From: Alphaproteobacteria bacterium
Lineage (GTDB): Bacteria; Pseudomonadota; Alphaproteobacteria; UBA8366; Aestuariispiraceae
Reading direction: 5' to 3'
Length of the DNA: 64,000 nucleotides
Assembly: GCA_033344895.1 (NCBI GenBank)
Contig: JAWPMN010000001.1
Location: 2,550,001-2,614,000 of the forward strand
The notes beneath the pieces are model-generated. The model saw nothing but the letters and a program-made list of their open reading frames with translations. It did no database searches and had not been told where the DNA came from. Positions 222-34,784 of this stretch are shown here, in pieces; the first letter of the stretch is position 1, and each line of letters starts with the position of its first letter. The position numbers and the translations under genes were made by a program.

Positions 222-812
222 ATGACGAATTCCTATTCCGAAGTTTTGGAAGCGGGACTGGTAACCCTCCGTCGCTATCGTGTTGAGGATGTCGGCGAAG
301 ATTACCTTCGCTGGATGCAGGACCCCGAGGTTACGCATTTTATTCAGGCCCGGTTCGACCACCACGACCTGGAATCACTGCGCAGTTTCGTAGCGGGGTT
401 TGACCATAAGGACCGCTTCATTTTTGCGATCCACGACAGAGAAACGCAGCACCGTATCGGCACCTTCACGCTCCGTATCAATCCCGTTCACCGATTCTCA
501 AGCATCGGTTATCTGATCGGGGAGAAGGCATATTGGCGCGGTGCTTACGCACTGGATGCTTGCCGGGCTGCCCTGGACTTTGTGTTTTTCGAACGCAAGG
601 TGCGAAAGGTCGTCGAACCGACGACGGAGAACCATCTTGCATCGAACTTCAACTTCAAGAGGTTGGGGTTCACCATGGTGGCGAAAATTCCTGACCTTTA
701 CTGGGGCGACGGCAAATATCAGGCCGCCACCTATTGGGCGATTTCAGTGGAGGAATGGGCCGCGCGCCGCGGACGGCCTGTTCCGGAAATCCCAACGCCC
801 GAACGGGACTGA
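222..812 (+). CDS. GNAT family N-acetyltransferase (RimJ/RimL type)
   Basis: A 196-residue GNAT protein. The N-terminal part (LVTLRRYRVEDVGEDYLRWM, near residues 14-33) and the middle (IGTFTLRINPVHRFSSIGYL, then GEKAYWRGAYALDACRAAL) match the acetyl-CoA-binding core of RimJ/RimL-like enzymes; FKRLGF near residue 145 is the usual late strand-helix. These enzymes acetylate amino groups, in glycan loci often aminosugars, so an N-acetyltransferase for a 4-amino sugar (PseH/LegH-like) is plausible but not shown. ATG 222 was chosen over the in-frame TTG at 219. It is the first complete gene of the long plus-strand operon. Confidence 0.8.
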   Translation: MTNSYSEVLEAGLVTLRRYRVEDVGEDYLRWMQDPEVTHFIQARFDHHDLESLRSFVAGFDHKDRFIFAIHDRETQHRIGTFTLRINPVHRFSSIGYLIGEKAYWRGAYALDACRAALDFVFFERKVRKVVEPTTENHLASNFNFKRLGFTMVAKIPDLYWGDGKYQAATYWAISVEEWAARRGRPVPEIPTPERD

Positions 813-844
813 CGGAGCGGAATCGGTACGATGGGATACGGTCG

Positions 845-8548: not shown

Positions 8549-10618
8549 ATGCGCACGGTTGCGATTATCCAGGCACGCATGGGGTCTTCCCGCCTGCCCG
8601 GGAAAATTCTGATGCCAATCGGCGGCGTGCCGATGCTTGAAAGAACGGTGAACGCGGCACGGGCGGTTTCCGGGATCGATGCGGTGATCGTGGCAACCAC
8701 CGATAATGCCCAGGACAATCCTGTCGCCGAGTGGTGCGCCCAATCCGGAGTCGAGATTTTCCGCGGTTCGGAAACAGATGTCCTGGACAGATTTTCAGGG
8801 GCTGCCAAACAGGCCGCTGCGGATGTGGTTGTCCGGCTGACAGCGGATTGTCCATTCCTCGATCCGGCGATTGTCGCCGAAACGTTAGCGCTGCATCGCA
8901 TTGCGAAGGCCGACTATGCCAGCAATGTTGCGCCGCCGAGCTGGCCTGACGGGCTGGACTGCGAAGTCATGACCAGTGCCGTGCTGGACGTGGCCGCCGC
9001 TGAGGCGATTCGTACCAGCGATCGCGAACATGTAACCCCTTTCATTCGCGCCAATCGACACCGGTTCAAGGTCGTCAATCTGCCATGCCCGATTCCAGGC
9101 GTCCATCGCCTGCGGTGGACGGTTGATACTCAGGAAGATTTGGAGCGGGCGGAACGGTTGGTCGGGGCTGCTTCGGCATTCTCGGGAAAAGGCGCTACGG
9201 AGACCCTGCGCTGGACCGAACTGCTGCATTGCGACATGCCGCAAGTGGGTGATTCCCGAGCGGCGGACGGGCGCAACGAAGGCTATCGGATCAGCTTGAC
9301 CGCAGATCAGAAGTCGCCCGCCAACCGATCTCCGAGAATCTACAAGAACTCCATGGGGCTTCTGGAGCGTGCCGAGAAGACCATCCCTACCGGAGCACAG
9401 ACTTTCAGCAAGAGCCGATATCAGTTCCCGGTCGGAGCGGCGCCGCTGTTTTTGACCGCTGGCCAGGGCGGCCGGGTATGGGATGTTGACGGCAATGAAT
9501 ATGTCGACATGGTCAATGGGCTGTTGTGTGTCTCGCTCGGCTATTGCGATCCTGAAGTCGATGCGGCGGTACGAGCCCAGATGGATCTTGGCGTCAGTTT
9601 CTCCCTGGCAACCGAACTGGAAGCAGAACTCTCTGAGAGGCTGGTTGATATCATCCCGGCGGCCGAATCGGTGCGGTTTACAAAGAATGGTTCCGATGCG
9701 ACCAGCGCCGCGGTTCGGATAGTGCGCGCAGCCACCGGGCGAAACCGAATCATCAGCTGCGGCTATCATGGTTGGCACGATTGGTACATCGGCGCCACCG
9801 CACGATCCCTGGGGGTGCCGGAGGCTGTTCGCGACCTGACAAGTGTTGTGGCTTACAACGATCTGGAAGCCGTCGAGGCTGTCCTGATGCGGTATCCGAA
9901 TCAGATCGCCGGCCTGATAATGGAACCTGCGAACATCACCGAACCTGATCCGGGATACCTGGCCGACTTGAAGGAGCTACTGCACCGTCACGGCGCGTAT
10001 CTGGTATTTGACGAAGTCATAACGGGGTTCCGCTTTTCGCTCGGCGGTGCACAGGAACTTTTTGGCGTTACGCCGGATCTCGCATGTTTCGGCAAGGGAA
10101 TGGCGAACGGGCTGCCTCTTTCCGCGGTCGTCGGACGGTCCGACCTGATGGCGCAGTTCGAACATATCTTTGTATCCGGAACCTTCGGCGGTGAGGCCTT
10201 GTCTCTTGCGGCGGCCATCGCTGTCGTCGACAAGATGCGGCGCGAACCGGTGATCGAAACCATCAACCGAAACGGCGGTGCGTTAGGCGCTGCGGTAGAG
10301 GAAGTGATTTCTTCCAACGGTCTCGGGGCGGTCATGAAGCTGAAAGGTTTCGACCCCTGGCGAATTCTGATGATTCAGGATCAACCGGGGGCCGATGCTA
10401 TGGCGATCAAGACGGTTCTGATTTCGGAAATGTGCCAGCGTGGCGTCTTGACCCTGGGTAGCCACAATATGTCCTACGCGCACTCCGAGGCCGACCTGCG
10501 TCAGGTTGTCCAGGCTTACCGGGAGGTCCTGCCAATCATCGCGGACAAGTTGGCGAGAAACAGGCTGGTGGAAGAATTGTCAGTGCCGCCGCTAGTGCCA
10601 GTTTTCAAGGTGCGGTGA
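8549..10618 (+). CDS. SpsF-type cytidylyltransferase / class III aminotransferase fusion
   Basis: A 689-residue bifunctional protein. Residues 1-230 are an SpsF/NeuA-like nucleotidyltransferase: IIQARMGSSRLPGK at 6-19, RLTADCPFLDP near 95 and TSDREHVTPFIR near 155. After a linker of about 35 residues, residues 270-689 form a class III PLP aminotransferase of the glutamate-1-semialdehyde aminomutase type: NGSDATSAAVR, FDEVITGFR, and PLP-binding Lys near 516 in FGKGMANGLPLS. SpsF relatives are found with nonulosonate genes, where the cytidylyltransferase may activate the acid as CMP-sugar. Here PseG and PseI follow directly. The exact reactions of both halves are inferred from the neighbourhood. 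Confidence 0.85.
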   Translation: MRTVAIIQARMGSSRLPGKILMPIGGVPMLERTVNAARAVSGIDAVIVATTDNAQDNPVAEWCAQSGVEIFRGSETDVLDRFSGAAKQAAADVVVRLTADCPFLDPAIVAETLALHRIAKADYASNVAPPSWPDGLDCEVMTSAVLDVAAAEAIRTSDREHVTPFIRANRHRFKVVNLPCPIPGVHRLRWTVDTQEDLERAERLVGAASAFSGKGATETLRWTELLHCDMPQVGDSRAADGRNEGYRISLTADQKSPANRSPRIYKNSMGLLERAEKTIPTGAQTFSKSRYQFPVGAAPLFLTAGQGGRVWDVDGNEYVDMVNGLLCVSLGYCDPEVDAAVRAQMDLGVSFSLATELEAELSERLVDIIPAAESVRFTKNGSDATSAAVRIVRAATGRNRIISCGYHGWHDWYIGATARSLGVPEAVRDLTSVVAYNDLEAVEAVLMRYPNQIAGLIMEPANITEPDPGYLADLKELLHRHGAYLVFDEVITGFRFSLGGAQELFGVTPDLACFGKGMANGLPLSAVVGRSDLMAQFEHIFVSGTFGGEALSLAAAIAVVDKMRREPVIETINRNGGALGAAVEEVISSNGLGAVMKLKGFDPWRILMIQDQPGADAMAIKTVLISEMCQRGVLTLGSHNMSYAHSEADLRQVVQAYREVLPIIADKLARNRLVEELSVPPLVPVFKVR

Positions 10619-12165
10619 CGGCGGTCATGGTCGAAGACCGGCCGCTCGTGGTATTTCGTACCGCTGCGGGGCCTCGGATCGGCGGCGGGCATTTGTTCCG
10701 CTGCCTGGCGGTGGCCCAGGCGGTGCGGGCGTTGGGCGCGCGTACTGCCTTTGCGCTCAATGATGCGACCGGCGGCTTGGCATCCGTTGTTGACGGTGAG
10801 GTTCGTTTTGTTGAAGCCGGTGATGGAACCGCCGACTGCGTGGATAGTGGCGGCGAGATTGAACGAATGCTCGCCGGCTTTGAGAAAGTCCCCGACTGGG
10901 TCGTGATCGACCACTACAGAAGGGGGACTGATTATGAAGAGGCCCTCGGGGAGATTGGCGCGTCGGTTTTATCGATTGACGATCTGTGCCGGTCGCATGC
11001 TGCCGGTTTTGTTGTCGATCCGGCGCCAGGACCTGATCGCGACCGGTACATCTCTGCTGCGCCGGACTCTTGGCTTCTATTGGGGGCGGAGTTTGCGCCG
11101 CTCCGACAATCCTTCATGACTGCACCTGTTGTTCAAGGCAGCGCAGGTTCGGTTCTGATCGCTTTTGGCGCTGCCGATCCCGATGGTATGACGGTGCGCG
11201 CTCTGAATGCGTTGGCCAAGAGACCGAATGTTCTCCTGGATCGTGAAGTCATCGCGCTGGTCGGGTCAGGGGCTTCGCACAGGCCCGCTGTCGAGGCGGC
11301 CGCAGCCGAAATCGGTGCTCGAGTCCTCTGTGATGTCTCTGATATGAACGGGTTGCTGGCCGGTGTCTCTCTGGCTATCGGTGCCGGCGGCGTGAGCGCG
11401 CTTGAACGGTGCTGCATGGGAATTCCCAGTATCGTGGTGGAGATCGCCGACAACCAGCGACCGACTATCGATGCCTTGATTGCTGCCGGCGCCGCCTTGG
11501 AAATCGGACTTCATGACTTTGAATCAGACCTTGCCCCGGCGGTGGCGCAGTTGCTGGAGGATACGACCGCCTGGAAAGCCATGTCCCGTGCCGCGCGTGG
11601 TTTATGTGACGGTTGGGGAGCGGCGCGGCTCGCGGATGCAATGCTGCGCCCCATTCGGGATCGGTCCGGTGCGCAGATATTGTGCCGACGGGCTTCCCGT
11701 CGGGATGCCGAGCGGTTGTTTGAATGGCAGAACGAACCGGGCGCGCGTCGCTATGCCCGCAATCCGGAACCTCCCGGGTGGACGGAGCACGAGGCGTGGT
11801 TCAATGCCGTAATGGGCGACAGGAACCGGCTGCTGCTGGTGGTGGAATGCCAGGGTAAACCGGTTGGTATGGTGCGTTACGACTACCTTGGTCCGGGCCG
11901 ATGCGAGGTGAGCATACTGATCAGCCAGGCCGCGGTGAACAAGGGGATAGGAGGGGCTGCGCTCTGTGCCGGGGAGCGGGAGGCCTGCCGCACGTTTGCA
12001 CAATCGGATGACCTGCCGGGAATGGAGTTGCTTGCCTATGTCGACAATGCCAATACGGCGAGCCGCCGACTATTTCATGCTGCGGGGTACGAACCGGTCG
12101 CCGGACAGTCCGGTTGGCACAGCAAATTATTGACCTGCGGAAGTTACGCGGAGACAGGAGCCTGA
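10615..12165 (+). CDS. pseG: PseG-like nucleotide-sugar hydrolase fused to a GNAT acetyltransferase
   Basis: A 516-residue fusion. Residues 1-345 match PseG, the GT-B-fold hydrolase that removes UDP from UDP-2,4-diacetamido-2,4,6-trideoxy-altrose: IGGGHLFRCLAVAQA near residues 22-36 holds the catalytic His, and GAGGVSALERCCMGIPSIVV near 260-280 is the nucleotide-binding part. Residues 350-516 are a GNAT domain (RRASRRDAERLFEWQNEP, GIGGAALCAGEREACRTF, ASRRLFHAAGYEP), the kind of activity supplied by PseH. Fusing them would couple 4-N-acetylation with UDP release. Start is GTG 10615, overlapping the previous stop (GTGA); ATG 10627 is an alternative. Confidence 0.85.
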   Translation: MTAVMVEDRPLVVFRTAAGPRIGGGHLFRCLAVAQAVRALGARTAFALNDATGGLASVVDGEVRFVEAGDGTADCVDSGGEIERMLAGFEKVPDWVVIDHYRRGTDYEEALGEIGASVLSIDDLCRSHAAGFVVDPAPGPDRDRYISAAPDSWLLLGAEFAPLRQSFMTAPVVQGSAGSVLIAFGAADPDGMTVRALNALAKRPNVLLDREVIALVGSGASHRPAVEAAAAEIGARVLCDVSDMNGLLAGVSLAIGAGGVSALERCCMGIPSIVVEIADNQRPTIDALIAAGAALEIGLHDFESDLAPAVAQLLEDTTAWKAMSRAARGLCDGWGAARLADAMLRPIRDRSGAQILCRRASRRDAERLFEWQNEPGARRYARNPEPPGWTEHEAWFNAVMGDRNRLLLVVECQGKPVGMVRYDYLGPGRCEVSILISQAAVNKGIGGAALCAGEREACRTFAQSDDLPGMELLAYVDNANTASRRLFHAAGYEPVAGQSGWHSKLLTCGSYAETGA

Positions 12166-12166
12166 G

Positions 12167-13234
12167 ATGAAAGAGTTTCAGATCGATGGCCGGTCGATCG
12201 GCTTCGGGCACCCTCCCTACGTGATCGCCGAACTGTCGGGAAATCACAATGGGGATTTGTCGCGCGCTCTGGCATTGGTCGATGCTGCGGCCGAGGCCGG
12301 GGCCGATGCCGTGAAGCTTCAGACCTATACCGCCGATACGATTACGATAGACCACGACGGCCCGGGCTTCACACTGGAAGGCGGGCTTTGGGACGGGCGT
12401 CGCTTGTATGAACTGTATCAGGAAGCTGCGACGCCTTGGGAGTGGCACGAAGCCCTGTTCGAGCGTGCACGGACTCACGGCATCGCAGTTTTCTCCTCTC
12501 CGTTCGACCATACGGCAGTCGACTTTTTGGAGGGGCTCGGAGCGCCTGCCTATAAGATCGCCAGCTTTGAAGCCGTGGACACGGATCTGATCGCCAAGGC
12601 CGCCGCTACGGGAAAACCCCTCATCATTTCTACGGGTATGGCGGATCTCAGCGAAATCGCCGAGGCGGTGCAATCGGCACAGGTCCCCGAGAGCGGGGGA
12701 GTGGCATTGCTGCATTGCGTCAGCGGCTACCCGACGCCGATGAAAGACTGCCATCTGGCGACGATTGGTGAGTTGATGCAAAGGTTCGACGTGCCGATCG
12801 GGTTGTCGGATCATAGTCACGGAACCACCGTACCGATTGCCGCCACTGCATTGGGGGCATGCATCATTGAAAAGCATTTCACCCTGAACCGCGCAGATGG
12901 CGGCGTGGATAGCGCGTTTTCTCTGGAGCCTCATGAGCTTGCGGAACTGGTGCGCGGAACACGGTCCGCCTGGGAGTCGATCGGAAGTCCGGGATTCGGT
13001 CTTAAACCGAGTGAAGCCGGAAACCGGCAGTTGCGGCGTTCGCTGTATGCGGTCAGGCCCATTGCGGCCGGAGAGGTCTTTACCCGGGACAATGTCAGAT
13101 CGATTCGTCCGGGATACGGCTTGCCTCCGAAGCGCCTGCACGATGTGCTGGGACGGAAAGCGGCCCGGGACATTGGTTTCGGTGAGCCCATGGCTGCCGA
13201 GATGATCCATGGCGGATTGCGAGACGACACGTGA
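12167..13234 (+). CDS. pseI: Pseudaminic acid synthase (NeuB family)
   Basis: A 355-residue NeuB-type synthase that condenses a 6-deoxy-diacetamido hexose with phosphoenolpyruvate to give a nonulosonic acid. Residues 1-270 form the TIM barrel, with ELSGNHNG, ADAVKLQTYTADTIT, FSSPFD, KIASFE and LSDHSHG, followed by ACIIEKHFTL; residues 290-355 are the SAF (antifreeze-like) domain with RSLYAVRPIAAGE. The ELSGNHNG and LQTY segments fit PseI better than sialic acid synthases. It starts 1 base after the PseG-GNAT gene and overlaps the next gene (GTGA). PseB and PseC are not seen in this window, so early steps must be encoded elsewhere or use the LegB-like and fused aminotransferase enzymes. Confidence 0.92.
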   Translation: MKEFQIDGRSIGFGHPPYVIAELSGNHNGDLSRALALVDAAAEAGADAVKLQTYTADTITIDHDGPGFTLEGGLWDGRRLYELYQEAATPWEWHEALFERARTHGIAVFSSPFDHTAVDFLEGLGAPAYKIASFEAVDTDLIAKAAATGKPLIISTGMADLSEIAEAVQSAQVPESGGVALLHCVSGYPTPMKDCHLATIGELMQRFDVPIGLSDHSHGTTVPIAATALGACIIEKHFTLNRADGGVDSAFSLEPHELAELVRGTRSAWESIGSPGFGLKPSEAGNRQLRRSLYAVRPIAAGEVFTRDNVRSIRPGYGLPPKRLHDVLGRKAARDIGFGEPMAAEMIHGGLRDDT

Positions 13235-20606: not shown

Positions 20607-21752
20607 ATGAGCCAACCGAATCCCATCGCTTTCGTCGATCTGAAGGCGCAATATGAAGCCTATCGTCAGGAAATCGACTCCGCGATCGCGACTGTCCTTG
20701 AACATGGCAAGTTCATCATGGGGCCAGAGGTGGCGTCTCTGGAGAACGAACTGGCGTCGTTCTGTGGCGCCAAGCATGCGATAGGCTGCTCCAGTGGCAC
20801 CGATGCCTTGATGCTGATCATGATGGCAGAGGGTGTTGGCACCGGAGATGCCATTTTCGTCCCCAGTTTCACCTTTACCGCCACCGCGGAGGTTCCGCTG
20901 CTGCTCGGGGCGACTCCAATCTTCGTGGATGTTGATCCCTCGGATTTCAACATGGCCCTGGTGGATCTGGAAAAGCGCATCCAGGCCGTGATCGACGGCG
21001 GAGAACTTCGGCCGTGCGGGATTCTTGCCACGGATCTGTTCGGCCTGCCGGCGGATTATACGGCCCTGGAGGCCTTGGCTGCGAAATACAATGTCGCACT
21101 TTGGTCTGATGCAGCACAGTCTTTCGGTGGAGCCCTGGGAAACCGCAAGGTCGGGTCCCTGTCGCGCGCCACCGCGACCAGCTTCTTTCCCGCCAAGCCT
21201 TTGGGGTGTTACGGTGACGGTGGCGCAGTCCTGACGAACGATGATGAATTGGCTGATGTCATGAAATCGATCCGGGCGCATGGCAAGGGGGGGGAGAAGT
21301 ATGACATTGTGCGCGTCGGTCTGAATGCGAGACTCGACACCTTGCAGGCGGCAGTTCTGCGCGCGAAGCTCCCACATTTCGCTTCCGAGATCGAAGTGCG
21401 TAACCGTGTCGCCGATGCCTATGATGCCAAGCTGAATGGCTTCGTGGAAACGCCAGCCCGTCGCCGTGGACACCAAAGCGCCTGGGCGCAATACACGATC
21501 AAGCTGCCCGCCGATCGTCGGGATGCCGTTGCGGCCGCGCTGAAAGCGGACGGCGTTCCGTGTGCGGTGTATTATCCAATGCCGATGCATCTGCAATCTG
21601 CGTACCGGCATTTTGGGGATGGTGAGGGTAGTCTGCCGGTGAGCGAGGCATTGAGCGGCCAGGTGCTGAGTCTGCCGATGCATCCCTTTCTGACCGAGCC
21701 GGAAATCGACCGCATTGCCGACGCAGTTAAGAGTGCTGTCGGATCCCGTTGA
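20607..21752 (+). CDS. wbpE: WbpE-like DegT/DnrJ/EryC1 aminotransferase
   Basis: A 381-residue sugar aminotransferase. IAFVDLKAQYEAYR and HGKFIMGPEVASLE (7-45), CSSGTDALMLIMMA, VPSFTFTATAEV, DAAQSFGGALGNRKVGSLS and SFFPAKPLGCYGDGGA, with PLP-binding Lys near 197, all match WbpE, which makes the 3-amino group of UDP-diNAc-uronate. A good ribosome site (GAAGGAAAG) precedes ATG 20607; the longer frame from TTG 20574 runs into WbpD. It completes the WbpB-WbpD-WbpE trio. The enzyme uses glutamate as amino donor in characterised relatives. Confidence 0.9.
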   Translation: MSQPNPIAFVDLKAQYEAYRQEIDSAIATVLEHGKFIMGPEVASLENELASFCGAKHAIGCSSGTDALMLIMMAEGVGTGDAIFVPSFTFTATAEVPLLLGATPIFVDVDPSDFNMALVDLEKRIQAVIDGGELRPCGILATDLFGLPADYTALEALAAKYNVALWSDAAQSFGGALGNRKVGSLSRATATSFFPAKPLGCYGDGGAVLTNDDELADVMKSIRAHGKGGEKYDIVRVGLNARLDTLQAAVLRAKLPHFASEIEVRNRVADAYDAKLNGFVETPARRRGHQSAWAQYTIKLPADRRDAVAAALKADGVPCAVYYPMPMHLQSAYRHFGDGEGSLPVSEALSGQVLSLPMHPFLTEPEIDRIADAVKSAVGSR

Positions 21753-21756
21753 AGAG

Positions 21757-22947
21757 ATGTCCGGTATCGGGGACAGACCGGTCATTCTTTTTCTGGACGC
21801 CGGTACGGGAAAAGGCGGGGCGTCGCGCTCACTCTATTACCTGATTGCTGCGCTGGACCGGACCCGTTGGGAACCGCATGTACTCTTGTTGGCCGGGAAT
21901 CCGCTGGTCGCCTGGTATGACTCCCTCGGTGTCTCCGTTACACCCTTGCCCGGAATCCCGAGATTCCGACCCGGGGAGCGCAAGAATCCGATCGCGTTCG
22001 CGCATTTCGTTTGGCGAATGCGTCATTATCCGGCGGTGCTCAAGGCTGCGCGTAAGGCGCTGGCGGGAAGGGCCGGTCTGTTGCATGCCAACCACGAGAA
22101 CCTGGCGCTGACCTGCCGGTGGCTGGCGGCCCAGTTGAAACGCCCCTGGGTATGTCACATACGGACAACCCTGGTCGATACGTGGTTCGCACGTCGGATA
22201 TACCGTTTCATCCTGCGCCGGGCAGATCGTGTAGTCTTCATTTCCGATGGCGTTGCTGCGCATTTCGAAAAACTATGTGGCATACAGGCAGGGAAGCATT
22301 GCCGCACCGTGTTCAACGCCTATCGGCCGGAAGCCGACCCCGTGGAGCCACTGAATCTGCGTGGCGATCCGGACAGGCAGAAGTTGCGAGTTTTGACTCT
22401 CAGCAACATTACGCCGAATCGTGGAATCGACCGACAGCTGGATGTTGCGGCGGTGCTGAAGAAACGGGGTATCACGGACATCCTGCTGGTGGTTTGTGGC
22501 GGACCACAGCACCGAAGCCTGAAACCGAATGCCGAGCCTGGCTACTATGAACAGATCCTGACCCGGGTCGAGGAGGAGGAACTGGGCGCGGTGATTGAAT
22601 TCACCGGTCACGTTCATCCCCCCGAACGCGCACTGGTGGCTTGCGATGTTTTGATGAAGCTTGGACGTGAAAACGTCCCCTGGGGGAGAGATCTGATCGA
22701 GGCGATGACCTTCGGGTTGCCGATTGTGACGCTCGGAACCTTTGAGACCGTTGTGGAGAACGGCGTGAACGGATTCATCGACGCCGAGTTTGATACCAAT
22801 CGCGTAGTCGGGCACTTGCTCCGATTGCGCGACGATGAGAATTTGCGTCAGACGATGGCGGTCGCCAATCAGCGAAAAGCGGAACGAATGTTCGCGCCGG
22901 AAGCCAGCGCCGCAGCAATTGAATCAATCTATGACGAGTTGAGATAG
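21757..22947 (+). CDS. GT4-type glycosyltransferase
   Basis: A 396-residue GT-B glycosyltransferase. The N-terminal acceptor half has the loop ILFLDAGTGKGGASRSLYYL (residues 10-29, GGA-R as in GT4 enzymes), and the donor half holds LRVLTLSNITPNRGIDRQLD near 215 and GRENVPWGRDLIEAMTFGLP near 310-330, the E-x7-E-like nucleotide-sugar site. It should transfer one sugar of the repeating unit at the cytoplasmic face of the membrane. ATG 21757 starts 4 bases after the WbpE stop; an upstream extension is possible but would overlap WbpE. Confidence 0.85.
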   Translation: MSGIGDRPVILFLDAGTGKGGASRSLYYLIAALDRTRWEPHVLLLAGNPLVAWYDSLGVSVTPLPGIPRFRPGERKNPIAFAHFVWRMRHYPAVLKAARKALAGRAGLLHANHENLALTCRWLAAQLKRPWVCHIRTTLVDTWFARRIYRFILRRADRVVFISDGVAAHFEKLCGIQAGKHCRTVFNAYRPEADPVEPLNLRGDPDRQKLRVLTLSNITPNRGIDRQLDVAAVLKKRGITDILLVVCGGPQHRSLKPNAEPGYYEQILTRVEEEELGAVIEFTGHVHPPERALVACDVLMKLGRENVPWGRDLIEAMTFGLPIVTLGTFETVVENGVNGFIDAEFDTNRVVGHLLRLRDDENLRQTMAVANQRKAERMFAPEASAAAIESIYDELR

Positions 22948-23916
22948 GTGAAGCATCGAATCTCGCACCGGCCGCCTCCAACCGGGGAGGCCGCCGACCG
23001 GCTTCGGTCGATGAATGCGGCCCTGGCGGAATCTGCGCCGAGGCCGAGCCCACTGGACGCGCCCGTCCTGTTTGTCTCTGGTGCCCCGCGTTCCGGCACG
23101 ACACTGATGGCACAGGCGCTCATCCGGTATTTCGATCTCGGCTTTGTGGACAATTTGACAGCCCGGTTCTGGCAGGCGCCGCAAACCGGAATGACCTTGT
23201 CTCAATCGGTGTTTGGCGAAAGCCGGCTTGAAGCCGCATCGTCCGATTTTGGCCGGACTGCCGGACGTGACATTCACGGCTTTCACTTTTTCTGGATGGA
23301 AAAACTGGCCTTGGAATGGGTCGATGATCTATTCGAGGATCCCGCCAGGCGCGGCGTTGACTGGCGTGAAATCCAAGGCTGGATAGCAGGAATGCAAAGG
23401 CTCTCCAGGGCCGGATTTCTGTTCAAGGGGTACTACCCGTCCTATTTCATGCCCCAGTTTCTGGCGCTCGACCCGCTCTGTGTCTTTGTCTGTATTGAAC
23501 GCGACCCGATTGAACAGGCTCTTTCGGTCTATGATGCGAGACAGAAGGAAATGCTGTCGCTCGAGTCCTGGTGGAGCATGCAGCCACCAGACTATTATGA
23601 ATTGGTCGATAAAGATGTTGATGAGCAAATTCTTGGGCAGATAACCGGTCTGAACGCACATTTTCGGCAGTTGGCCTCCCAAGCGGGCGACCGATGTATT
23701 TTCGTACGATACGAAAATCTATGCTCCGATCCGGAGGGAACCTTGATTCATATCGGCGAAGCGGTCGAGAAGGCGACGGGTTTTGCGCTCTCGCGGCGCG
23801 GCCTGGTACCGGAAATTACCCGAACACACCGCAAGTCGGATAAATCCCAGGCCGCTCTTGTAGCGCGGCTCGTCGAGCGGCTGGCGCAGTTTGAGAAATC
23901 AGGAGATACGGCATGA
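22948..23916 (+). CDS. Sulfotransferase family protein
   Basis: A 322-residue PAPS-type sulfotransferase-like protein. LFVSGAPRSGTTLMAQALI near residue 45 is the 5'-phosphosulfate loop, FVCIERDPIEQALSVYDAR near 175 is the 3'-phosphate-binding region, and IFVRYENLCSDPEGTLIHI near 250 is typical of bacterial Sulfotransfer family members. The start is GTG 22948, immediately after the preceding stop, or ATG 23011 (MNAALAE); the P-loop position fits either. It overlaps the WbqC gene by 4 bases. A second such gene in the operon makes sulfated glycan likely but unproven. Confidence 0.8.
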   Translation: MKHRISHRPPPTGEAADRLRSMNAALAESAPRPSPLDAPVLFVSGAPRSGTTLMAQALIRYFDLGFVDNLTARFWQAPQTGMTLSQSVFGESRLEAASSDFGRTAGRDIHGFHFFWMEKLALEWVDDLFEDPARRGVDWREIQGWIAGMQRLSRAGFLFKGYYPSYFMPQFLALDPLCVFVCIERDPIEQALSVYDARQKEMLSLESWWSMQPPDYYELVDKDVDEQILGQITGLNAHFRQLASQAGDRCIFVRYENLCSDPEGTLIHIGEAVEKATGFALSRRGLVPEITRTHRKSDKSQAALVARLVERLAQFEKSGDTA

Positions 23917-24608
23917 GGCGGATTGGCATCCATCAGCCCAACTACCTGCCGTGGCTGGGCTATTTCCGGAAGATCGCGAGATGTGACGAGTTCGTCTTCT
24001 ACGACAATGCACGGCTGCCTTTGGGGAAAAGCTACGTCTCCCGCAATGCGATTCGCACCCATCAGGGAACACAATGGCTGACTGTCCCGATCGGGAAGGA
24101 GCAGATTCCGATATCGGAGGTCAAAGTATCGGATCAGAGATGGCGCAAGAAGCATGTCGGCAGCTTGATGCAATCCTACGGCAAGGCTCCCTATGCATCC
24201 GTTCTGAAAGACGCGGTTTTCCCGGTTTTGGAGCATGAATTCGATCGAATAGCCGATCTCAATATCGCCTTGATCAAAAGCTTGGCGTCCTGGATCGGTT
24301 TGGCGGATGTCCGGTTTCTCAGAGCCTCTGAGTTGGGGCTTTCAGAAGAAGGGGCGGAAAGCATCGAGCCGATCTTGCAGGCTCTGGACGCGACTGTCTA
24401 TGTGACCGGAAAAGGCGCTGGAACGCAGCGTAGTATTGATGAAGCGTCCCTTAATGCGCTGGGCATCGACGTCGACTATATCTCTGCCGAGTTTCCGGAA
24501 TACCGGCAGCTGCACGGCGCTTTTGAGCCGAGGATGTGTGCCGTTGATGCTTGCGCGAATATCGGCCCGGATGGCGTCAAACGGCTGCTGGACGGGGACG
24601 GGGAGTGA
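23913..24608 (+). CDS. WbqC family protein
   Basis: A 231-residue WbqC-family protein. The diagnostic start IGIHQPNYLPWLGYFRKIA (residues 4-22), the following DEFVFYDNARLP, and YVSRNAIRT with LTVPIGKEQIP near 40-65 are all present. The family occurs in O-antigen and capsule loci, but its biochemical role is not firmly established; a sugar-modifying or thioester-linked function has been suggested by context only. It overlaps neighbours on both sides by 4 bases, a sign of translational coupling. Confidence 0.85.
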   Translation: MRRIGIHQPNYLPWLGYFRKIARCDEFVFYDNARLPLGKSYVSRNAIRTHQGTQWLTVPIGKEQIPISEVKVSDQRWRKKHVGSLMQSYGKAPYASVLKDAVFPVLEHEFDRIADLNIALIKSLASWIGLADVRFLRASELGLSEEGAESIEPILQALDATVYVTGKGAGTQRSIDEASLNALGIDVDYISAEFPEYRQLHGAFEPRMCAVDACANIGPDGVKRLLDGDGE

Positions 24609-25678
24609 CAGCAAGGAAGTCGCGCATTCTGTTCGTCCTGCCGAGTTTCGCGGGGGGCGGCGCGGAGCGGGTCCTGCTGACGGTTCTGGGGCGCCTGGAC
24701 CGTGAACGCTTCTCACCTGGCCTGCTTGTGCTTTCCGATGCGGGACCGCTGAAACCGTTGGTTCCGGACGATATCGACGTCCGGGTCCTGGGGACAGGCA
24801 GGGTCAGATCGGCATTGCCGTTGCTTCGGCGGGCCATTCGGGATGCGGCGCCGGATGCGGTGCTATCGACGATGGCATACCTGAATTTCGCGGTGTTGTC
24901 GGTCGGACCGGGTGGTCCTCTCTATTTTGTCCGGGAAGCAAACATGCCGGATCATACCGCCCGGCAGATCGGGTCGCATGTGCTGACCAGGCTGCTTTAT
25001 CGGCTGTTGTACAGGCGCGCCTCGGCCGTCCTTTGTAACGCAAGGCCGATGCGCGATGCGCTCGCGGCCTGGGGGGTGGCGCAAGACAGGCTTGTTGCGA
25101 TGCCGAACCCGGTTGATGTGGATATGATCCGTAAAGGCGTAGAGGCGCGGGTGGTGCCAGGGGACGGGCGCCGATTTGTTGCGGCTGGGCGGCTGACCGA
25201 GCAGAAGGGGTTTGACCGTCTTGTCGATTGGTTTCGCAACATGCCTGCGTCCGACCGTCTCTGTATTTTTGGAGATGGTCCTCAGGCCGAGCAGTTGCGT
25301 GCGCAAATTGATGGTGCCGGGTTTGGGGAGCGGATTCTCCTGAAGGGGTTTGATACCCGTGTCGCCGACTGGATTGCCGGGGCCGATGCGGTTCTCTTGC
25401 CATCTCGATGGGAAGGAATGCCGAATGTGGCTTTGGAATCACTGGCGCTTGGGACGCCGGTGATAGCGCATCGCGAAGCTGGCGGAATCGCGGAACTGGC
25501 CGATGCGACATCCAGACACGCGGTTAAAGTCGCGGAAGACGGCGCGGCTTTCCTGGCGGCGATGCAGGAGGTTGAAGCCACTTTACCGCGGCTGAAATCT
25601 CCACGTCCCAATCTTCTGCCGGCGTCCTTTCATGTGAATGAGGTCGTGCACCGCTATGAAACCCTATTGTCGAGATAG
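24605..25678 (+). CDS. GT4 glycosyltransferase
   Basis: A 357-residue GT4-family glycosyltransferase. ILFVLPSFAGGGAERVLL (residues 8-25) is the family's first loop, GRLTEQKGFDRLVDWF near 200 starts the donor domain, and PSRWEGMPNVALESLALGTP near 280 is the E-x7-E donor site. Retaining transfer of a sugar from UDP or GDP donors is expected. GTG 24605 overlaps the WbqC stop (GTGA). A 63-base gap follows before the LegB-like gene, the largest gap in the operon, and may hold an internal promoter, though none is evident. Confidence 0.88.
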   Translation: MTARKSRILFVLPSFAGGGAERVLLTVLGRLDRERFSPGLLVLSDAGPLKPLVPDDIDVRVLGTGRVRSALPLLRRAIRDAAPDAVLSTMAYLNFAVLSVGPGGPLYFVREANMPDHTARQIGSHVLTRLLYRLLYRRASAVLCNARPMRDALAAWGVAQDRLVAMPNPVDVDMIRKGVEARVVPGDGRRFVAAGRLTEQKGFDRLVDWFRNMPASDRLCIFGDGPQAEQLRAQIDGAGFGERILLKGFDTRVADWIAGADAVLLPSRWEGMPNVALESLALGTPVIAHREAGGIAELADATSRHAVKVAEDGAAFLAAMQEVEATLPRLKSPRPNLLPASFHVNEVVHRYETLLSR

Positions 25679-25741
25679 CAGGTATTTACATTTGCCGTCG
25701 CGGCGTATCTTTCACCCCCGGATGAATTGGCGAGAGGGACG

Positions 25742-26755
25742 ATGACCCAGCAAACACTGCGGAATAAGAGGGTCCTGGTGACCGGGGCGGACGGCTTTAT
25801 CGGCTCTCATCTTGTCGAAAGGCTGCAGCGCGACGGCGCCAGTGTAACGGCCCTGAGCGCATACAATTCCTTCGGGTCGGCCGGGTGGCTGGACAGTTTG
25901 GCCGAAGGCGTTCGCAGAGCTATTGAGATTCGTGCCGGCGATATCCGCGATCCCAACTTCGTTCGGGATCTTGTGGCGGGGCAGGAGGTGGTTTTCCATC
26001 TTGCGGCCCTGATTGCCATTCCCTTCAGCTACGTCGCGCCGCAGTCCTATGTGGATGTAAATGTGACGGGTACCCTGAATGTCTTGGAGGCATGCCGTAT
26101 GCATTCCGTCCAGCGTCTGGTACACACATCGACGTCGGAAACCTATGGTACGGCTCAGTACACGCCGATCGACGAATTGCATCCGATGCAGGGGCAGTCG
26201 CCGTACTCCGCCAGCAAGATTGGCGCTGACCATATGGCTGAAGCATATTGGCGCAGTTTCAACCTTCCGGTGGTCATTTTGCGCCCGTTCAATACCTTCG
26301 GCCCCCGGCAAAGTGAGCGGGCGGTCATTCCGACCGTCATTCGCCAAATGCTGGATCCGGGCTGCGACACGATTCGTATCGGTGATATTAGTCCCGTCCG
26401 GGATTTCAATTTCGTGGGGGATATTGCCGATGCCTTCCATACCGTCGGCACCTCGGAAAAGGTGGAGTACGGCACTGTCTACAATGCCGGTAGCGGCCAT
26501 GGGGTAACTATCGGGGAGACCATCGAAATTCTGCGGGGCATTACAGGATGCAACAAGCCGCTGCAGGAGGAAGTCGATCGCAAACGGCCCAAAAATTCAG
26601 AAGTCTTTGAGCTGATCGCCAAGGCCGAACGAATAGGTGCGCTAGGCTGGCGGCCGGCGGTCGGTCTGGAAGCCGGACTGGAAAAGACGGTGGCGTTCTG
26701 GCGTCGAGAAATCGGCGAAGGGCGAATTCGCCAATCCAGCGACTATCTGGTCTGA
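25742..26755 (+). CDS. legB: LegB-like NAD-dependent 4,6-dehydratase
   Basis: A 337-residue extended SDR. VLVTGADGFIGSHLVERL (residues 10-27), YNSFGSAGWLD near 44, AGDIRDPN, HLAALIAIPFSYVAPQSYVD near 90-110, STSETYGTAQYTPI and the active-site PYSASK near 155 follow the LegB pattern closely. LegB converts GDP-GlcNAc to its 4-keto-6-deoxy form in legionaminic acid synthesis. Here it sits in an operon with PseG/PseI-type genes, so the exact nucleotide sugar is uncertain. ATG 25742 has an upstream GAGAGGGACG ribosome site. Confidence 0.85.
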   Translation: MTQQTLRNKRVLVTGADGFIGSHLVERLQRDGASVTALSAYNSFGSAGWLDSLAEGVRRAIEIRAGDIRDPNFVRDLVAGQEVVFHLAALIAIPFSYVAPQSYVDVNVTGTLNVLEACRMHSVQRLVHTSTSETYGTAQYTPIDELHPMQGQSPYSASKIGADHMAEAYWRSFNLPVVILRPFNTFGPRQSERAVIPTVIRQMLDPGCDTIRIGDISPVRDFNFVGDIADAFHTVGTSEKVEYGTVYNAGSGHGVTIGETIEILRGITGCNKPLQEEVDRKRPKNSEVFELIAKAERIGALGWRPAVGLEAGLEKTVAFWRREIGEGRIRQSSDYLV

Positions 26756-29623: not shown

Positions 29624-32600
29624 CTATCGGTTCTGCATGAGGTCACGATACAGCTCGTGGAACGAGGCCTCCGCCGAGGACAAGGAATAATGGTCGCATA
29701 TGACAGATCGGGCTAAGGCACGACGAGCCGACAGAGCAGCGTCATCCAAGTCGCGAAACTCTGCGATCGCCGTCTGGAGCGCCTTTGGGTCGGAGGGTGG
29801 GATCAACCATCCCGTATCCCGTACGATATAGGCGGAATCGCCGACATCGGTCGCGATCGGAACCAGTCCGGTCGCCATACCCTCCGCGACCGCGTTCGAA
29901 AAGCCTTCGCCGTATGCCGAACTCGAAACGACAGAATCCGCGATCTGAAGGATACTGGGAACATCAGAACGTTGTCCCAGTGCTACGACCCGTTCGCGCC
30001 CGGCAAACGCCTCTGTACCACGCCCGACGACGACCAACCACACACCAGGCACATTCTCGACGGCTGAAATCAGTCCGTCGTAGTTCTTCATCGGGTCGAC
30101 TCGGGCAACCTGTATCAGCACCCGGGCGTTCGCGGGGATTCCAAACTCTTCCCGAAGTGATCCGCGAAGATCGGGGCGCGGACTGAAACGGTCTATGTCG
30201 ATCCCATTGTGCAAAACCTCAAAGCGGCGTGGCTTGTAGCCTAGATCGGCGTGAACCCGCTTTCCGGTGTGGGAGTTGGCGGTCACGACATCCGGCAGGG
30301 AGGAAAGCCAACGACAGACTGATATCACGGCACGGAGGCGCCACCCGTAGCGCGACAGGTCCATGTCGGAACATCTGATGCCCCAGATCAGAGCCGTAGC
30401 ATGGCGGCGGCCGGACAAGTAGAGAGCTGCTAACGCGATCAGGTCGCCATGGTACATCCAACCCTGCACGATATGTGGTTTCTCGCGACGAATGAGCCGG
30501 GCCAAGCGCCACAGGCCTGAAATGCTGGGGCGTGCGTTGCTGAAGCCAAGATCGTGGACGGAAGCACCGGTTTCTTCGACCTCCCGCTTCAGCAAACCGT
30601 TTGGCAGCAGAGAAATGACGGTGGGCTGTATGGTTTGTCGGCGCGCGCGCATCAATCCCCAAAGCATGGTCTCCGCGCCTCCGCGGTTCAGCGACGTGAT
30701 GACATGAAAAATCCGGATTGTTTCCGAGGCGCCTCGTGCGATCCCGCCACGCCATGACGGCGCCAATCCGAGTGACGCGCCGAGAAACAGCCAGAAAATT
30801 CTTTGGTACGAAATGTCGTGGGCAAAACTGAACAGGACAAAAGCAAAGCAGATCGTGAGTATCAGTGCGTTTCGGCTGTCCGACCAGCGGGGACGGTACT
30901 TCCAGACATGGTACAGGCCGTAGCACGGCAGAGCGGCGGCAATTGCGAATCCGACGATACCGAATTCGGTGAGGATCCAGACCGGCGTTGCGTGAATCAC
31001 CAGACTGCCGCCATCGAAACTCACGGCCCGATGCACAAACGCGCCGAGCCCGGCACCGAAAATCGGTGCCTCCCTCCATAAGTCGAAGGCGCTACTGACA
31101 CTGAACAGACGTTCCAATTGACCGCGCGTATCGAAGCTCGCAATTCCGCGAGACACAGCGGTACCGGCTTGAACTTCATCGGCCGGGAACAAGCCGGGCA
31201 GCGCCCAGACGATGGCATAAAGCAGAACGGCGGCAAGCAGAGACTGGGCCAGAAATCGCAGCGATACGATGCGGAGAAAGCTGCACAGGACGATGATCAT
31301 AAGGCCGACGCCGATACCGGTCTTTGATGAGGATTGCCACAATCCGAACAGCAAAACCCCCGTCAATATGGGCCAGGTGAACCGACGCAGCGGGATAGCC
31401 GAACCGGGCCGCCAATAGGCAAAACTACAGCATAACGCCGCGAGCAGTTGAAACGCATAGGCATTACGGTTGGCGGCGAAGCCCTCGAACTCAGCTGCCA
31501 GGGACAGCGGCGCATCAAACATCCGCCATGCGATCTGGTGCGCGAGATTTGCCAATGTAACGACCACGGCGGTGGCTATTACAAAGTCACTGAGGCGTCG
31601 TAGCCCCCGGCGTCCCCAAAGGCTTGCGAGCGCGCATCCGGCCAGAAAATAACCCAGTATAAACAGCCATCCGATCAGACGGTTATTCAATGCCCAAGGA
31701 GTTACGCCGAACCGATCCGCGCCGATCAGGAAGCCGATCGAGATCATTGCAGTCAGGGCGATTAGCCACATCGCTACACTGTAGGGCATGCGAATTGCGC
31801 TTCGGCGTTCGAGAAACAGGAAAACCCCGGCCACCGTGAGTGCAAGAAGGGCGAACGGGTCGGCGAGATTTACCGTGATCTCCGCACCGCTCAATGTGGT
31901 TCTCACCTGGAAGTACAGCAGTACGGCGGCGCTGATTCCCAGCAGAGGGGCCAGTCGCCGATCAGCGATCTGCGCGTGCACATTAGCGCCCGTCGACCGG
32001 TCCGCCGCTGGTACCGCAGGAGAAGGGTCCGATTGCGGAAACAGTAGTATCGAACCGGAAATCAAAACAGAAACGGTCGACAGTAATCCCACTGCGACAG
32101 AGATTGCGACGGCGTCCCCAGCCGATACGCCCAGTAAGCCCAACACCCATACAGATGTCACTTCGCGGACACCCCAACCGTTTACACTGATAGGCAAACT
32201 GGCGGCGAAAGTCACAATGGTGGCGGCTGCGAAACTCGACATGAAATCAATGCTGGGTTCTGTCGAAACAACTGCCAATGCGAAAACAACGATCGATACG
32301 AGTTGGGCCAGAAGTGCAATGAGTCCGACCTCCCCGATCTTTCCGAGGATGACTTTGCTGAAGACGGATTTCATCAATGCAATTTCCGGCTTCGAACGCG
32401 ATAGGCTTAGTCCCGTCAGGAAAGACAGCAGAACCGCGGCCGCAATGGTAGCGATGGGGATTCCGTCGAAGATGTCAGAGATTCTTGCTGGCCCTATTAG
32501 ATACAGGGCTCCGGCAAGGAACAGTGTCCCGCCGATCGCGGCAAGCATGATCCGTTCATAGGTGGTAATCAGGGCGACGGTCGAGACACCGACACCGGTG

Positions 32601-32926
32601 CGGCGGAGTATTGCCCGCCGCCCCAAAATGGTCCCAACGAGACTGAAAGCGACCAGGCTTGAAACAAGTCCCGCGACTGTTGCGCGCAGTGCTGTTGCAA
32701 ATTTTGGCGACTTGTCCACCAGCGCCAAAAGGCGTGAAAGACGGGTCGCCACCAGCAGGATGTTGCAGAGAACCAAGAGAATGATCGCCGTTGCCGACCA
32801 AATAGGAAACTGCCCCAGCGAGGTGCCGATTTCCCGGATGTCGACTTGCCTCAGGATTAATATCGCCAATCCGATAGAAACCAGAAACGGCAGGGCCTTG
32901 CGGGTACGACTGAGGGTTGGCTGCAT
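29624..32926 (-). CDS. Three-domain fusion: LPG-synthase-TM flippase-like / O-antigen ligase / GT4 glycosyltransferase
   Basis: An 1100-residue protein in one uninterrupted frame. Residues 1-300 are an LPG-synthase-TM (AglD-like) domain with about 8 helices and the signature SLPISVNGWGVREVTSVW near 243-260. Residues 325-725 are a Wzy/WaaL-type O-antigen ligase with GLWQSSSKTGIGVGL near 528, the catalytic-loop pattern FGAGLGAFVHR near 623-633, and HATPVWILTEFGIVGF near 645. Residues 736-1100 are a cytoplasmic GT4 transferase: HVITSLNRGGAETMLWGL, VARVDPMKNYDGLI and YGEGFSNAVAEGMATGLVP. Each part is normally a separate protein of the same pathway. It would join export or lipid-sugar handling, polymer ligation and a transfer step. 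It is transcribed toward the big operon. Confidence 0.9.
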   Translation of the reverse strand: MQPTLSRTRKALPFLVSIGLAILILRQVDIREIGTSLGQFPIWSATAIILLVLCNILLVATRLSRLLALVDKSPKFATALRATVAGLVSSLVAFSLVGTILGRRAILRRTGVGVSTVALITTYERIMLAAIGGTLFLAGALYLIGPARISDIFDGIPIATIAAAVLLSFLTGLSLSRSKPEIALMKSVFSKVILGKIGEVGLIALLAQLVSIVVFALAVVSTEPSIDFMSSFAAATIVTFAASLPISVNGWGVREVTSVWVLGLLGVSAGDAVAISVAVGLLSTVSVLISGSILLFPQSDPSPAVPAADRSTGANVHAQIADRRLAPLLGISAAVLLYFQVRTTLSGAEITVNLADPFALLALTVAGVFLFLERRSAIRMPYSVAMWLIALTAMISIGFLIGADRFGVTPWALNNRLIGWLFILGYFLAGCALASLWGRRGLRRLSDFVIATAVVVTLANLAHQIAWRMFDAPLSLAAEFEGFAANRNAYAFQLLAALCCSFAYWRPGSAIPLRRFTWPILTGVLLFGLWQSSSKTGIGVGLMIIVLCSFLRIVSLRFLAQSLLAAVLLYAIVWALPGLFPADEVQAGTAVSRGIASFDTRGQLERLFSVSSAFDLWREAPIFGAGLGAFVHRAVSFDGGSLVIHATPVWILTEFGIVGFAIAAALPCYGLYHVWKYRPRWSDSRNALILTICFAFVLFSFAHDISYQRIFWLFLGASLGLAPSWRGGIARGASETIRIFHVITSLNRGGAETMLWGLMRARRQTIQPTVISLLPNGLLKREVEETGASVHDLGFSNARPSISGLWRLARLIRREKPHIVQGWMYHGDLIALAALYLSGRRHATALIWGIRCSDMDLSRYGWRLRAVISVCRWLSSLPDVVTANSHTGKRVHADLGYKPRRFEVLHNGIDIDRFSPRPDLRGSLREEFGIPANARVLIQVARVDPMKNYDGLISAVENVPGVWLVVVGRGTEAFAGRERVVALGQRSDVPSILQIADSVVSSSAYGEGFSNAVAEGMATGLVPIATDVGDSAYIVRDTGWLIPPSDPKALQTAIAEFRDLDDAALSARRALARSVICDHYSLSSAEASFHELYRDLMQNR

Positions 32927-33126: not shown

Positions 33127-34074
33127 ATGAAGATACTCCTGGTCAGCCAGGCGGATTCTGCAGAATCTTGGGGGCAGGGATTACGAGCGACGAACCTCCC
33201 GTTGCCGCTGGAGATCTGGCCGGATATGGCAGTGCCGGAGGAAATTCGTTATGCGATCGCCGCAAAACCACCGGCCGGCCTGCTGGCCTCGTTGCCGAAT
33301 CTGCGTGCCATCCTGTCGCTTTGGGCCGGGGTTGATCACATAACGTCGGACCCGGACTGGCCGCAACACATCCCCATCTATCGCATGATTGAACCAGGTT
33401 TGACCGGGGGGATGGTCGAATTCGTGCTGTCCCAGGTTCTGAACCTGCATTTGAACAATTACGAAATCACTGAGGCGCAGCGCCGGAAGGACTGGCTGCG
33501 GGAGCCGCGCGGCGCTTTCGGTCTGGAACCGTTGGTCGGTGACCGGACTGTCGGCGTGCTGGGGCTTGGCGAGATGGGGCGGAACTCGGCCGAGATGTTG
33601 CGGCGAGTTGGGTTCAAGGTGATCGGATGGTCGCGCCGCCAGAAAACGTTGGATGGCATTGAATGTCTGAGCGGAACAGACGGGCTCGATACGCTTCTGT
33701 CATGCAGTGACATACTGGTAAATCTGTTGCCCTTGACGCCGGAAACGAACGGCCTGTTGAACGCCGACATGCTTCGGAAGTTGCCGCGAGGCGCGGGACT
33801 GATCAACACGGGTAGAGGACAGCATATTGTCGATGCCGACCTAATTGCCGTTTTGGACGAGGGACATCTTTCACGGGCTGTTTTGGATGTCTTTGATACG
33901 GAACCCTTACCTCAGGATCATCCCTTCTGGACCCACCCCAGGGTCACCGTCTATCCGCATATCGCCAGCGTAACACGCGTTAAGACCGGAGTGGCGTCCT
34001 TGGCACGGTCACTGGAACTGCTTGAATCGGGTGAAACGCCGGCGGGCTATTTCGATCCCGATCGCGGTTACTGA
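33127..34074 (+). CDS. ghrA: Glyoxylate/hydroxypyruvate reductase A-like D-2-hydroxyacid dehydrogenase
   Basis: A 315-residue NAD(P)-dependent reductase of 2-oxo acids. The cofactor fold is TVGVLGLGEMGRNSAEML near residues 141-158 with GWSRRQK after the second strand, which suits NADPH. INTGRGQHIVDADL near 230 holds the catalytic Arg, FDTEPLPQDHPFW near 257 the Glu, and TVYPHIASVT near 277 the His. Members reduce glyoxylate to glycolate and hydroxypyruvate to glycerate. AGAGAGG-type bases before ATG 33127 give a reasonable ribosome site. Its 3' end overlaps the convergent RluA gene by 7 bases. The 200 bases upstream hold no gene. Confidence 0.85.
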   Translation: MKILLVSQADSAESWGQGLRATNLPLPLEIWPDMAVPEEIRYAIAAKPPAGLLASLPNLRAILSLWAGVDHITSDPDWPQHIPIYRMIEPGLTGGMVEFVLSQVLNLHLNNYEITEAQRRKDWLREPRGAFGLEPLVGDRTVGVLGLGEMGRNSAEMLRRVGFKVIGWSRRQKTLDGIECLSGTDGLDTLLSCSDILVNLLPLTPETNGLLNADMLRKLPRGAGLINTGRGQHIVDADLIAVLDEGHLSRAVLDVFDTEPLPQDHPFWTHPRVTVYPHIASVTRVKTGVASLARSLELLESGETPAGYFDPDRGY

Positions 34075-34784
34075 CGGACCACACTCCACCCGCAGCGGCC
34101 GAACGCTGCCTGCATCGCGGCCGGTATCGGCGCAGTGGCAGAGACTGCACTCTTCTTGGGGTAGAGGGGCAGTTCGATCGATCGCGCGTGCAGGTGCAGC
34201 GGTATGCCGGAATCTGCGCGCCGGTCTTCGGCAGTTCCGTACCAGGGGTCGCCCAGGATCGGAAATCCGGACTGGGCGCAATGGACGCGAATCTGGTGTG
34301 TGCGTCCGGTTCTGGGCGACAGTTCGAGCCAGCACAGACCATCTTCCGACAGGCCCGCGACCCGAAAATCCGTCACGGCTTCCTGGCCTTCCCTGTCCAC
34401 CACCATGCGCCAGCCGCCGGACTTCGTCGATGTCTTGAGCAGGGGGAAGTCAATGCGTCCGGACTTCTCCGCCGGCATTCCGCGGACCACGGCCCAGTAG
34501 GTCTTGCGCACGCGTCCGTCGGAAAACAGTTTTCCGACCCGTCGCAACGCCTTCGGATGCCGGCCCAGGACCAGGCAACCGGACGTGTCGCGATCCAGTC
34601 GGTGCGCCAGGGCCGGCGGCCTTGGCAGGCCGAACCGCAGCGCGTCGAACTGATCCTCCATCGAAGGTCCGCCCGAGGGACCGGCGTGAACCGGAACACC
34701 GGCCGGCTTGTCGACGATCAGGATCAGCCCGTCGCGATAGAGCACGTCCGGCGCGGCGGATGACAGGCCGTCAGATGATGACAT
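34068..34784 (-). CDS. RluA family RNA pseudouridine synthase
   Basis: A 238-residue pseudouridine synthase without an S4 domain. The catalytic Asp lies in AHRLDRDTSGCLVLGR near residues 60-75; DKPAGVPVHAGP near 25, KTYWAVVRG near 98 and GRTHQIRVHCAQSGFPILGD near 180 are the other family motifs. It isomerises uridine in rRNA or tRNA; the short form resembles RluA/RluC/RsuA relatives used on 23S rRNA or tRNA, and the target base cannot be told. Convergent with and slightly overlapping the GhrA gene. Confidence 0.88.
   Translation of the reverse strand: MSSSDGLSSAAPDVLYRDGLILIVDKPAGVPVHAGPSGGPSMEDQFDALRFGLPRPPALAHRLDRDTSGCLVLGRHPKALRRVGKLFSDGRVRKTYWAVVRGMPAEKSGRIDFPLLKTSTKSGGWRMVVDREGQEAVTDFRVAGLSEDGLCWLELSPRTGRTHQIRVHCAQSGFPILGDPWYGTAEDRRADSGIPLHLHARSIELPLYPKKSAVSATAPIPAAMQAAFGRCGWSVVRQ

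What the first reader, a model, noticed from the sequence alone, without database searches (positions are those of the whole stretch)
29624..32926. Flippase-like, O-antigen ligase and glycosyltransferase domains in one 1100-residue protein
One uninterrupted minus-strand frame encodes an LPG-synthase-TM domain (1-300), a Wzy/WaaL-type ligase domain (325-725) and a GT4 transferase (736-1100). Known proteins carry these as separate chains. Physical linkage would couple membrane handling of a lipid-linked sugar, polymer ligation and a sugar transfer, and gives one gene facing the whole glycan operon. I know of no characterised protein with this exact order.
Basis: partly seen in the sequence, partly recalled or inferred. 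Interest (0 to 1): 0.8.

Follow-up and report, generated by a model that had tools for sequence, protein, structure and literature searches.

The report
Three-in-one sugar-coat assembly protein
One bacterial gene encodes a single 1100-residue membrane protein that joins a lipid-translocase-like domain, an O-antigen-ligase-like domain and a sugar-adding enzyme; it is real and conserved in four species of one genus, but each two-way combination of these parts, or one much like it, was already known, so it is a new variant rather than a new kind of system.

Summary
Window 29624-32926 (-) is one open frame of 1100 codons: PF03706 (LPG_synthase_TM) at 12-291, a WaaL/Wzy_C-type ligase domain at about 325-725, and a GT4 transferase at 738-1096. 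It is not a sequencing error: three relatives in the same genus carry the same order uninterrupted at 40-43% identity, and trees fit one origin. The catalytic Arg606 and His645 of the ligase domain are invariant in 21 of 21 LPG-Wzy proteins, and the GT4 E-x7-E pair is intact. Fold search of a weak LPG-Wzy model puts WaaL first, with MprF the other high-probability family. The LPG-Wzy pair is an older unit, found without the GT across Pseudomonadota and also as adjacent separate genes. The GT was added once, in this genus; its unfused relatives sit in nonulosonate cassettes like the one here. Literature already mentions PF03706 fused to O-antigen ligases or glycosyltransferases (preprint cited in PMC11980842) and a bifunctional GT-ligase, WadA (PMC9938171). 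I found no report of all three in one chain. Best reading: a single-chain module that adds a sugar in the cytoplasm, helps move a lipid-linked glycan across the membrane, and attaches it in the periplasm. Ligase versus polymerase versus protein glycosylation is unresolved.

The parts
29624..32926 (-). three-domain gene, 1100 aa (whole frame with stop)
31982..32926 (-). residues 1-315: PF03706 / MprF-flippase-like membrane domain with the motif PISVNGWGVRE (245-255)
   Evidence: Pfam 2.7e-16; P245, G250, G252, R254, E255 invariant in 21 of 21; Foldseek MprF prob 0.94-1.00 for the best hits, weak E-values
30722..31981 (-). residues 316-735: WaaL/Wzy_C-type ligase domain, R606 and H645
29627..30721 (-). 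residues 736-1100: GT4 glycosyltransferase domain, E1007-x7-E1015
24551..25675 (+). GT4 gene of the neighbouring cassette; its homologue directly precedes the stand-alone GT homologue in L037, L040 and L048, and a homologue precedes the fusion itself in G005 (L088)
21715..22944 (+). GT4 gene of the cassette
23913..24605 (+). WbqC-like gene of the cassette
25727..26752 (+). LegB-like NAD-dependent 4,6-dehydratase of the cassette
12167..13231 (+). NeuB/SAF nonulosonate synthase of the same island
34071..34784 (-). conserved gene at the island edge (pseudouridine-synthase-like by eye), 74-85% identical in the relatives

Best explanation
The protein is one membrane-bound assembly module for the variable surface glycan made by the adjacent nonulosonate island. 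Shown: one polypeptide; a PF03706/MprF-like membrane domain; a WaaL/oligosaccharyltransferase-type domain with the catalytic Arg and His kept; and an intact-looking GT4 domain related to stand-alone transferases of the same type of glycan cassette. Inferred: (1) the C-terminal GT4 adds a sugar on the cytoplasmic face to a lipid-linked intermediate (undecaprenyl-PP oligosaccharide or lipid A-core); (2) the N-terminal domain helps that lipid cross the membrane, with selectivity coming from being tethered to the enzymes, as proposed for MprF; (3) the ligase-type domain transfers the glycan to its acceptor in the periplasm. Sub-estimates: one chain with three folded domains 0.97; role in the island's glycan 0.85; GT4 acting on a lipid-linked intermediate 0.65; translocase role of the N-terminal domain 0.5; ligase 0.5, polymerase 0.3, protein glycosylation 0.2.
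For: Domains and fold. R606 and H645 invariant in 21 of 21 LPG-Wzy proteins, in the region that aligns with the WaaL/PglL loop whose residues R288/H338 are named in PMC3643930. Homologues of neighbouring window genes (18283, 21715, 23913, 24551) surround stand-alone homologues of the GT in L037 and L048, partly in L047 and L040, and in G005 the fusion directly follows a 24551-type GT. A NeuB gene lies about 3-17 kb from the fusion in all four genomes. The fusion sits at the same island edge in all four: flanking genes are 74-98% identical, the fusion 40-43%, as expected for a glycan-specific enzyme. No Wzx, ABC exporter or initiating transferase was found among the annotated cassette genes of the window; the genome's clear Wzx and Bac_transf genes are about 1 Mb away. 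The same GT4 family is fused elsewhere to a WecA-type transferase, a Wzx-type protein and GT2, consistent with work on undecaprenyl-PP glycans. Precedents: WadA and the proximity model for MprF domains.
Against: No activity is shown. The equivalent of the MprF gate Arg304 is missing, and in a two-domain paralogue group (G002, G003, G005) the first half of the LPG domain has decayed while the Wzy part is kept. In G589 an LPG-Wzy gene shares an operon-like cluster with a MurJ-type flippase, so the LPG domain need not be the flippase there. Several two-domain genes lie outside obvious glycan clusters. G001, in the same genus, has neither the fusion nor a PF01943 match, so lack of Wzx is not specific to carriers. 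The LPG-Wzy model is low confidence (pLDDT 61) and its best Foldseek E-value is only 1.1e-3.
Confidence: 0.45

Rival explanations
1. The Wzy_C-type domain is the polymerase (Wzy) of the island's repeat unit, not a ligase; the chain then couples a sugar addition, lipid movement and polymerisation.
For: In G589 and G667 the LPG-Wzy gene lies in clusters with Bac_transf and GT genes, where a Wzy would be expected. A Sphingomonas EPS cluster has an 'O-antigen ligase family' gene assigned as Wzy (PMC11340318). In G008 a second Wzy_C gene lies directly next to the LPG-Wzy gene, as if polymerase and ligase were paired.
Against: The best solved relatives by profile are an oligosaccharyltransferase and WaaL, with their Arg and His kept. 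No Wzz-type gene was identified in the annotated cassette of the window.
Confidence: 0.27
2. The ligase-type domain is a protein O-oligosaccharyltransferase (PglL-like) that puts the nonulosonate-containing glycan on exported proteins.
For: 9rmk, annotated as an oligosaccharyltransferase, is the top profile hit. Nonulosonate clusters serve general protein O-glycosylation in other bacteria (PMC6120980).
Against: None of the PglL-specific Pfam models was reported for this protein or its relatives. No pilin-like or other obvious acceptor gene was recognised next to the gene.
Confidence: 0.17
3. The fusion only co-localises enzymes; the PF03706 part is an inactive or structural anchor and flipping is done by another protein.
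For: Missing gate Arg; decayed N-terminal half in one paralogue group; a MurJ-type flippase near an LPG-Wzy gene in G589.
Against: The motif P-x4-G-x-G-x-R-E is invariant in 21 of 21, even where the N-terminal half has decayed, which argues for a kept function.
Confidence: 0.3
4. Sequencing error or pseudogene joining separate genes.
For: None found.
Against: Same order and open frame in four genomes at about 40% identity; fused GT domains form one clade with 100/100 support.
Confidence: 0.01

Closest known systems
WadA of Brucella (bifunctional O-antigen ligase, GT25 + GT121; PMC9938171, PMC10920833)
   Same: One chain with a cytoplasmic glycosyltransferase and a WaaL-type multi-pass ligase domain, in Alphaproteobacteria.
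   Different: WadA has the GT at the N-terminus and of family GT25; here a GT4 is at the C-terminus and a PF03706 domain is added in front. WadA has experimental support; this protein has none.
PF03706 (MprF flippase / 'PplT' domain) fused to an O-antigen ligase (Hauser et al. preprint, as cited in PMC11980842)
   Same: PF03706-type lipid-transport domain fused to a ligase; matches the two-domain LPG-Wzy family described here.
   Different: I could not read the preprint, so whether it lists the extra C-terminal GT4 is unknown.
MprF
   Same: PF03706-type translocase domain in one chain with the enzyme that makes its lipid substrate; Foldseek match.
   Different: Different enzyme; the gate Arg304 equivalent and the synthase domain are absent.
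AglD of Haloferax (glycosyltransferase + C-terminal PF03706; PMC5898192)
   Same: GT and PF03706 domain in one chain in a glycosylation pathway.
   Different: Different order, no ligase domain; the organism (an archaeon) and pathway differ.
WaaL (7tpg) and PglL-type oligosaccharyltransferases
   Same: Fold and Arg/His of the active-site loop.
   Different: Those are single-function proteins; the position that appears to match WaaL R215 is Lys535 here and Leu, Ile, Arg or Lys in relatives.

Membership tests
PF03706 LPG_synthase_TM | profile score above curated cut-off | tested here: met
   60.3 bits against 33.4
MprF | Glu-Arg gate (RtMprF E280-R304) | tested here: not met
   Motif Glu present (E255), but no Arg or Lys near the R304 position in the following membrane helix; the pairing of E255 with E280 is inferred from the motif
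WaaL / Wzy_C superfamily (PF04932) | profile score at or above cut-off | tested here: inconclusive
   31.7 bits, equal to the cut-off, not listed by hmmscan; orthologues 26.6, 32.8 and 39.7 bits
WaaL / Wzy_C superfamily (PF04932) | conserved Arg and His of the periplasmic active-site loop | tested here: met
   R606 and H645 invariant in 21 of 21, in the region aligned to WaaL 7tpg and 9rmk
PglL protein O-oligosaccharyltransferase | PglL_A (PF15864) and PglL_B signatures | tested here: not met
   not among Pfam hits at E up to 1 or 0.01 in relatives
O-antigen ligase (function) | transfer of undecaprenyl-PP glycan to lipid A-core | not testable with these tools
   needs LPS analysis of a mutant
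GT4 glycosyltransferase | GT-B fold with E-x7-E | tested here: met
   E1007 and E1015 present and in invariant columns (E1007, E1015)
WadA class (GT25 + GT121) | N-terminal GT25 domain followed by the ligase | tested here: not met
   the GT is GT4-like and C-terminal

The most novel reading that the evidence does not exclude
A complete add-a-sugar, translocate and attach pathway in one polypeptide, in which a PF03706 domain serves as the lipid-glycan translocase of a glycan island that has no Wzx or ABC exporter of its own.
Probability: 0.25. Interest if true: 0.8.

Novelty: new variant of a known kind. Interest (0 to 1): 0.5.

Why it matters
It would be a natural single-chain link between cytoplasmic sugar addition, membrane translocation and periplasmic attachment, three steps usually done by separate proteins. 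It gives a compact test of whether PF03706 domains move undecaprenyl-linked glycans, which is suspected from MprF and AglD but, as far as I found, not shown.

Tried and rejected
Sequencing error or chance join: rejected by four orthologues. Plasmid relatives of LPG-Wzy: none. GT-containing long frames in G124 (1028 codons) and G242 (911): not further three-domain fusions. In G124 the coding part is 374 aa; in G242 the 891-aa frame has no LPG or Wzy match in front of the GT and looks like an out-of-frame extension. Absence of Wzx as proof of a flippase role: weakened because G001 lacks both and G589 has a MurJ-type protein near an LPG-Wzy gene. The preprint that surveys PF03706 fusions is not held.

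Full report
Observation. The minus-strand frame 29624-32926 encodes 1100 residues with no stop. Pfam finds LPG_synthase_TM at 12-291 and GT4 domains at 749-1059. Wzy_C reaches exactly its cut-off when the genome is searched with that family. NCBIfam places the GT nearest to TIGR03088, far below that model's cut-off. No start codon lies between residues 721 and 754.

It is real. Three genomes of the same genus carry the same three-domain frame at 40-43% identity. Fused GT domains form one clade (100/100). The LPG-Wzy parts of the four also group (90/94). The simplest account is one fusion in the ancestor of these species. Of six genus genomes, four have it, one (G002) has only a two-domain LPG-Wzy protein and one (G001) has neither.

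The older unit is LPG-Wzy. Two-domain proteins of about 690-825 aa without GT occur in scattered families: in G008, G013 (cut by a contig end) and G015 of the same order, in seven further genomes of a 385-genome class sample (in one, G386, the LPG part is reduced), and in G667, G589, G691 and G683 in a phylum sample of 399. LPG and Wzy are also adjacent separate genes in the same direction in G359 (16 bp apart) and G347 (touching) and in G441, which suggests how the fusion arose. Within the 44-genome order sample, the class sample and the phylum sample, three-domain frames were found only in this genus.

Function of the parts. A profile of the Wzy part hits an oligosaccharyltransferase (9rmk) and WaaL (7tpg). 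R606 and H645 are invariant in 21 of 21; the matching Arg and His matter in E. coli WaaL and are conserved in PglL (PMC3643930). The family also fits the ligase motif H-[NSQ]-x9-G-x2-[GTY], recalled from memory, except that this protein has Ala after the His. The LPG part keeps PISVNGWGVRE. Glu280 and Arg304 form a gate in RtMprF (PMC8131360); the motif Glu is kept here, the Arg is not. Foldseek on the LPG-Wzy model ranks WaaL first (prob 1.00) and finds several MprF chains at prob 0.94-1.00, all with weak E-values. The GT keeps E-x7-E and matches GT4 structures such as HepE and BshA.

Context. The window holds a glycan island: NeuB, a cytidylyltransferase fused to a class III aminotransferase, DegT and LegB-like enzymes, GTs and WbqC. 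Fragments of the same cassette surround stand-alone homologues of the GT domain in Devosia (L037), Agaricicola (L048), L047 and L040; in L037, L040 and L048 the GT directly follows the homologue of window gene 24551-25675. In G005 the three-domain gene itself follows such a GT. So the GT domain most likely acts in this glycan pathway. The gene sits at the island edge close to the same conserved neighbour in all four genomes; neighbours are 74-98% identical and the fusion 40-43%. NeuB lies close by in all four. No Wzx or ABC exporter was seen in the window's cassette, though several cassette genes have no Pfam match.

Mechanism. I favour a module in which the GT4 finishes a lipid-linked intermediate, the PF03706 domain helps it across, and the ligase-type domain attaches it. 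Each enzymatic step is inference. The polymerase and protein-glycosylation readings remain open, and the N-terminal domain may be only an anchor.

Known systems. WadA is a tested GT-ligase chain, observed in five genera. PMC11980842 states, citing a preprint, that MprF-type transport domains are often fused to O-antigen ligases and glycosyltransferases, and proposes selectivity by proximity. AglD joins a GT and PF03706. The three-way chain is therefore a new variant. I found no report of it, but the literature held here is incomplete.

Noticed in passing
window 8549-10615 (+); L132 1461-3557: Cytidylyltransferase (CTP_transf_3) fused to a class III aminotransferase in one frame, conserved in G003 at 42% identity.
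   Followed up: partly
window 10615-12162 (+): 516-aa protein with a C-terminal GNAT domain and an N-terminal half that resembles PseG by eye; no Pfam match for the N-terminal half.
   Followed up: no
window 734-2044 (+): MaoC-like dehydratase and short-chain dehydrogenase domains in one frame inside the glycan island.
   Followed up: no
L088 8155-10401: CBS + NeuB + SAF + xylose-isomerase-like barrel in one 749-aa frame in G005.
   Followed up: no
L043, L084, L071, L173, L174, L176: The same GT4 family is fused to a WecA-type transferase (L043), a Wzx-like protein (L084) or, judged by Pfam in L071 and by eye in the rest, a GT2 domain in other genomes.
   Followed up: partly
L056, L057, L025: A second, two-domain LPG-Wzy group in G002, G003 and G005 in which the first half of the LPG domain has lost conserved residues while the GWGxRE motif and the ligase Arg/His remain.
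   Followed up: partly
L072 9022-12594: In G008 a Wzy_C-type gene lies directly beside the LPG-Wzy gene, as if a polymerase and ligase pair.
   Followed up: no
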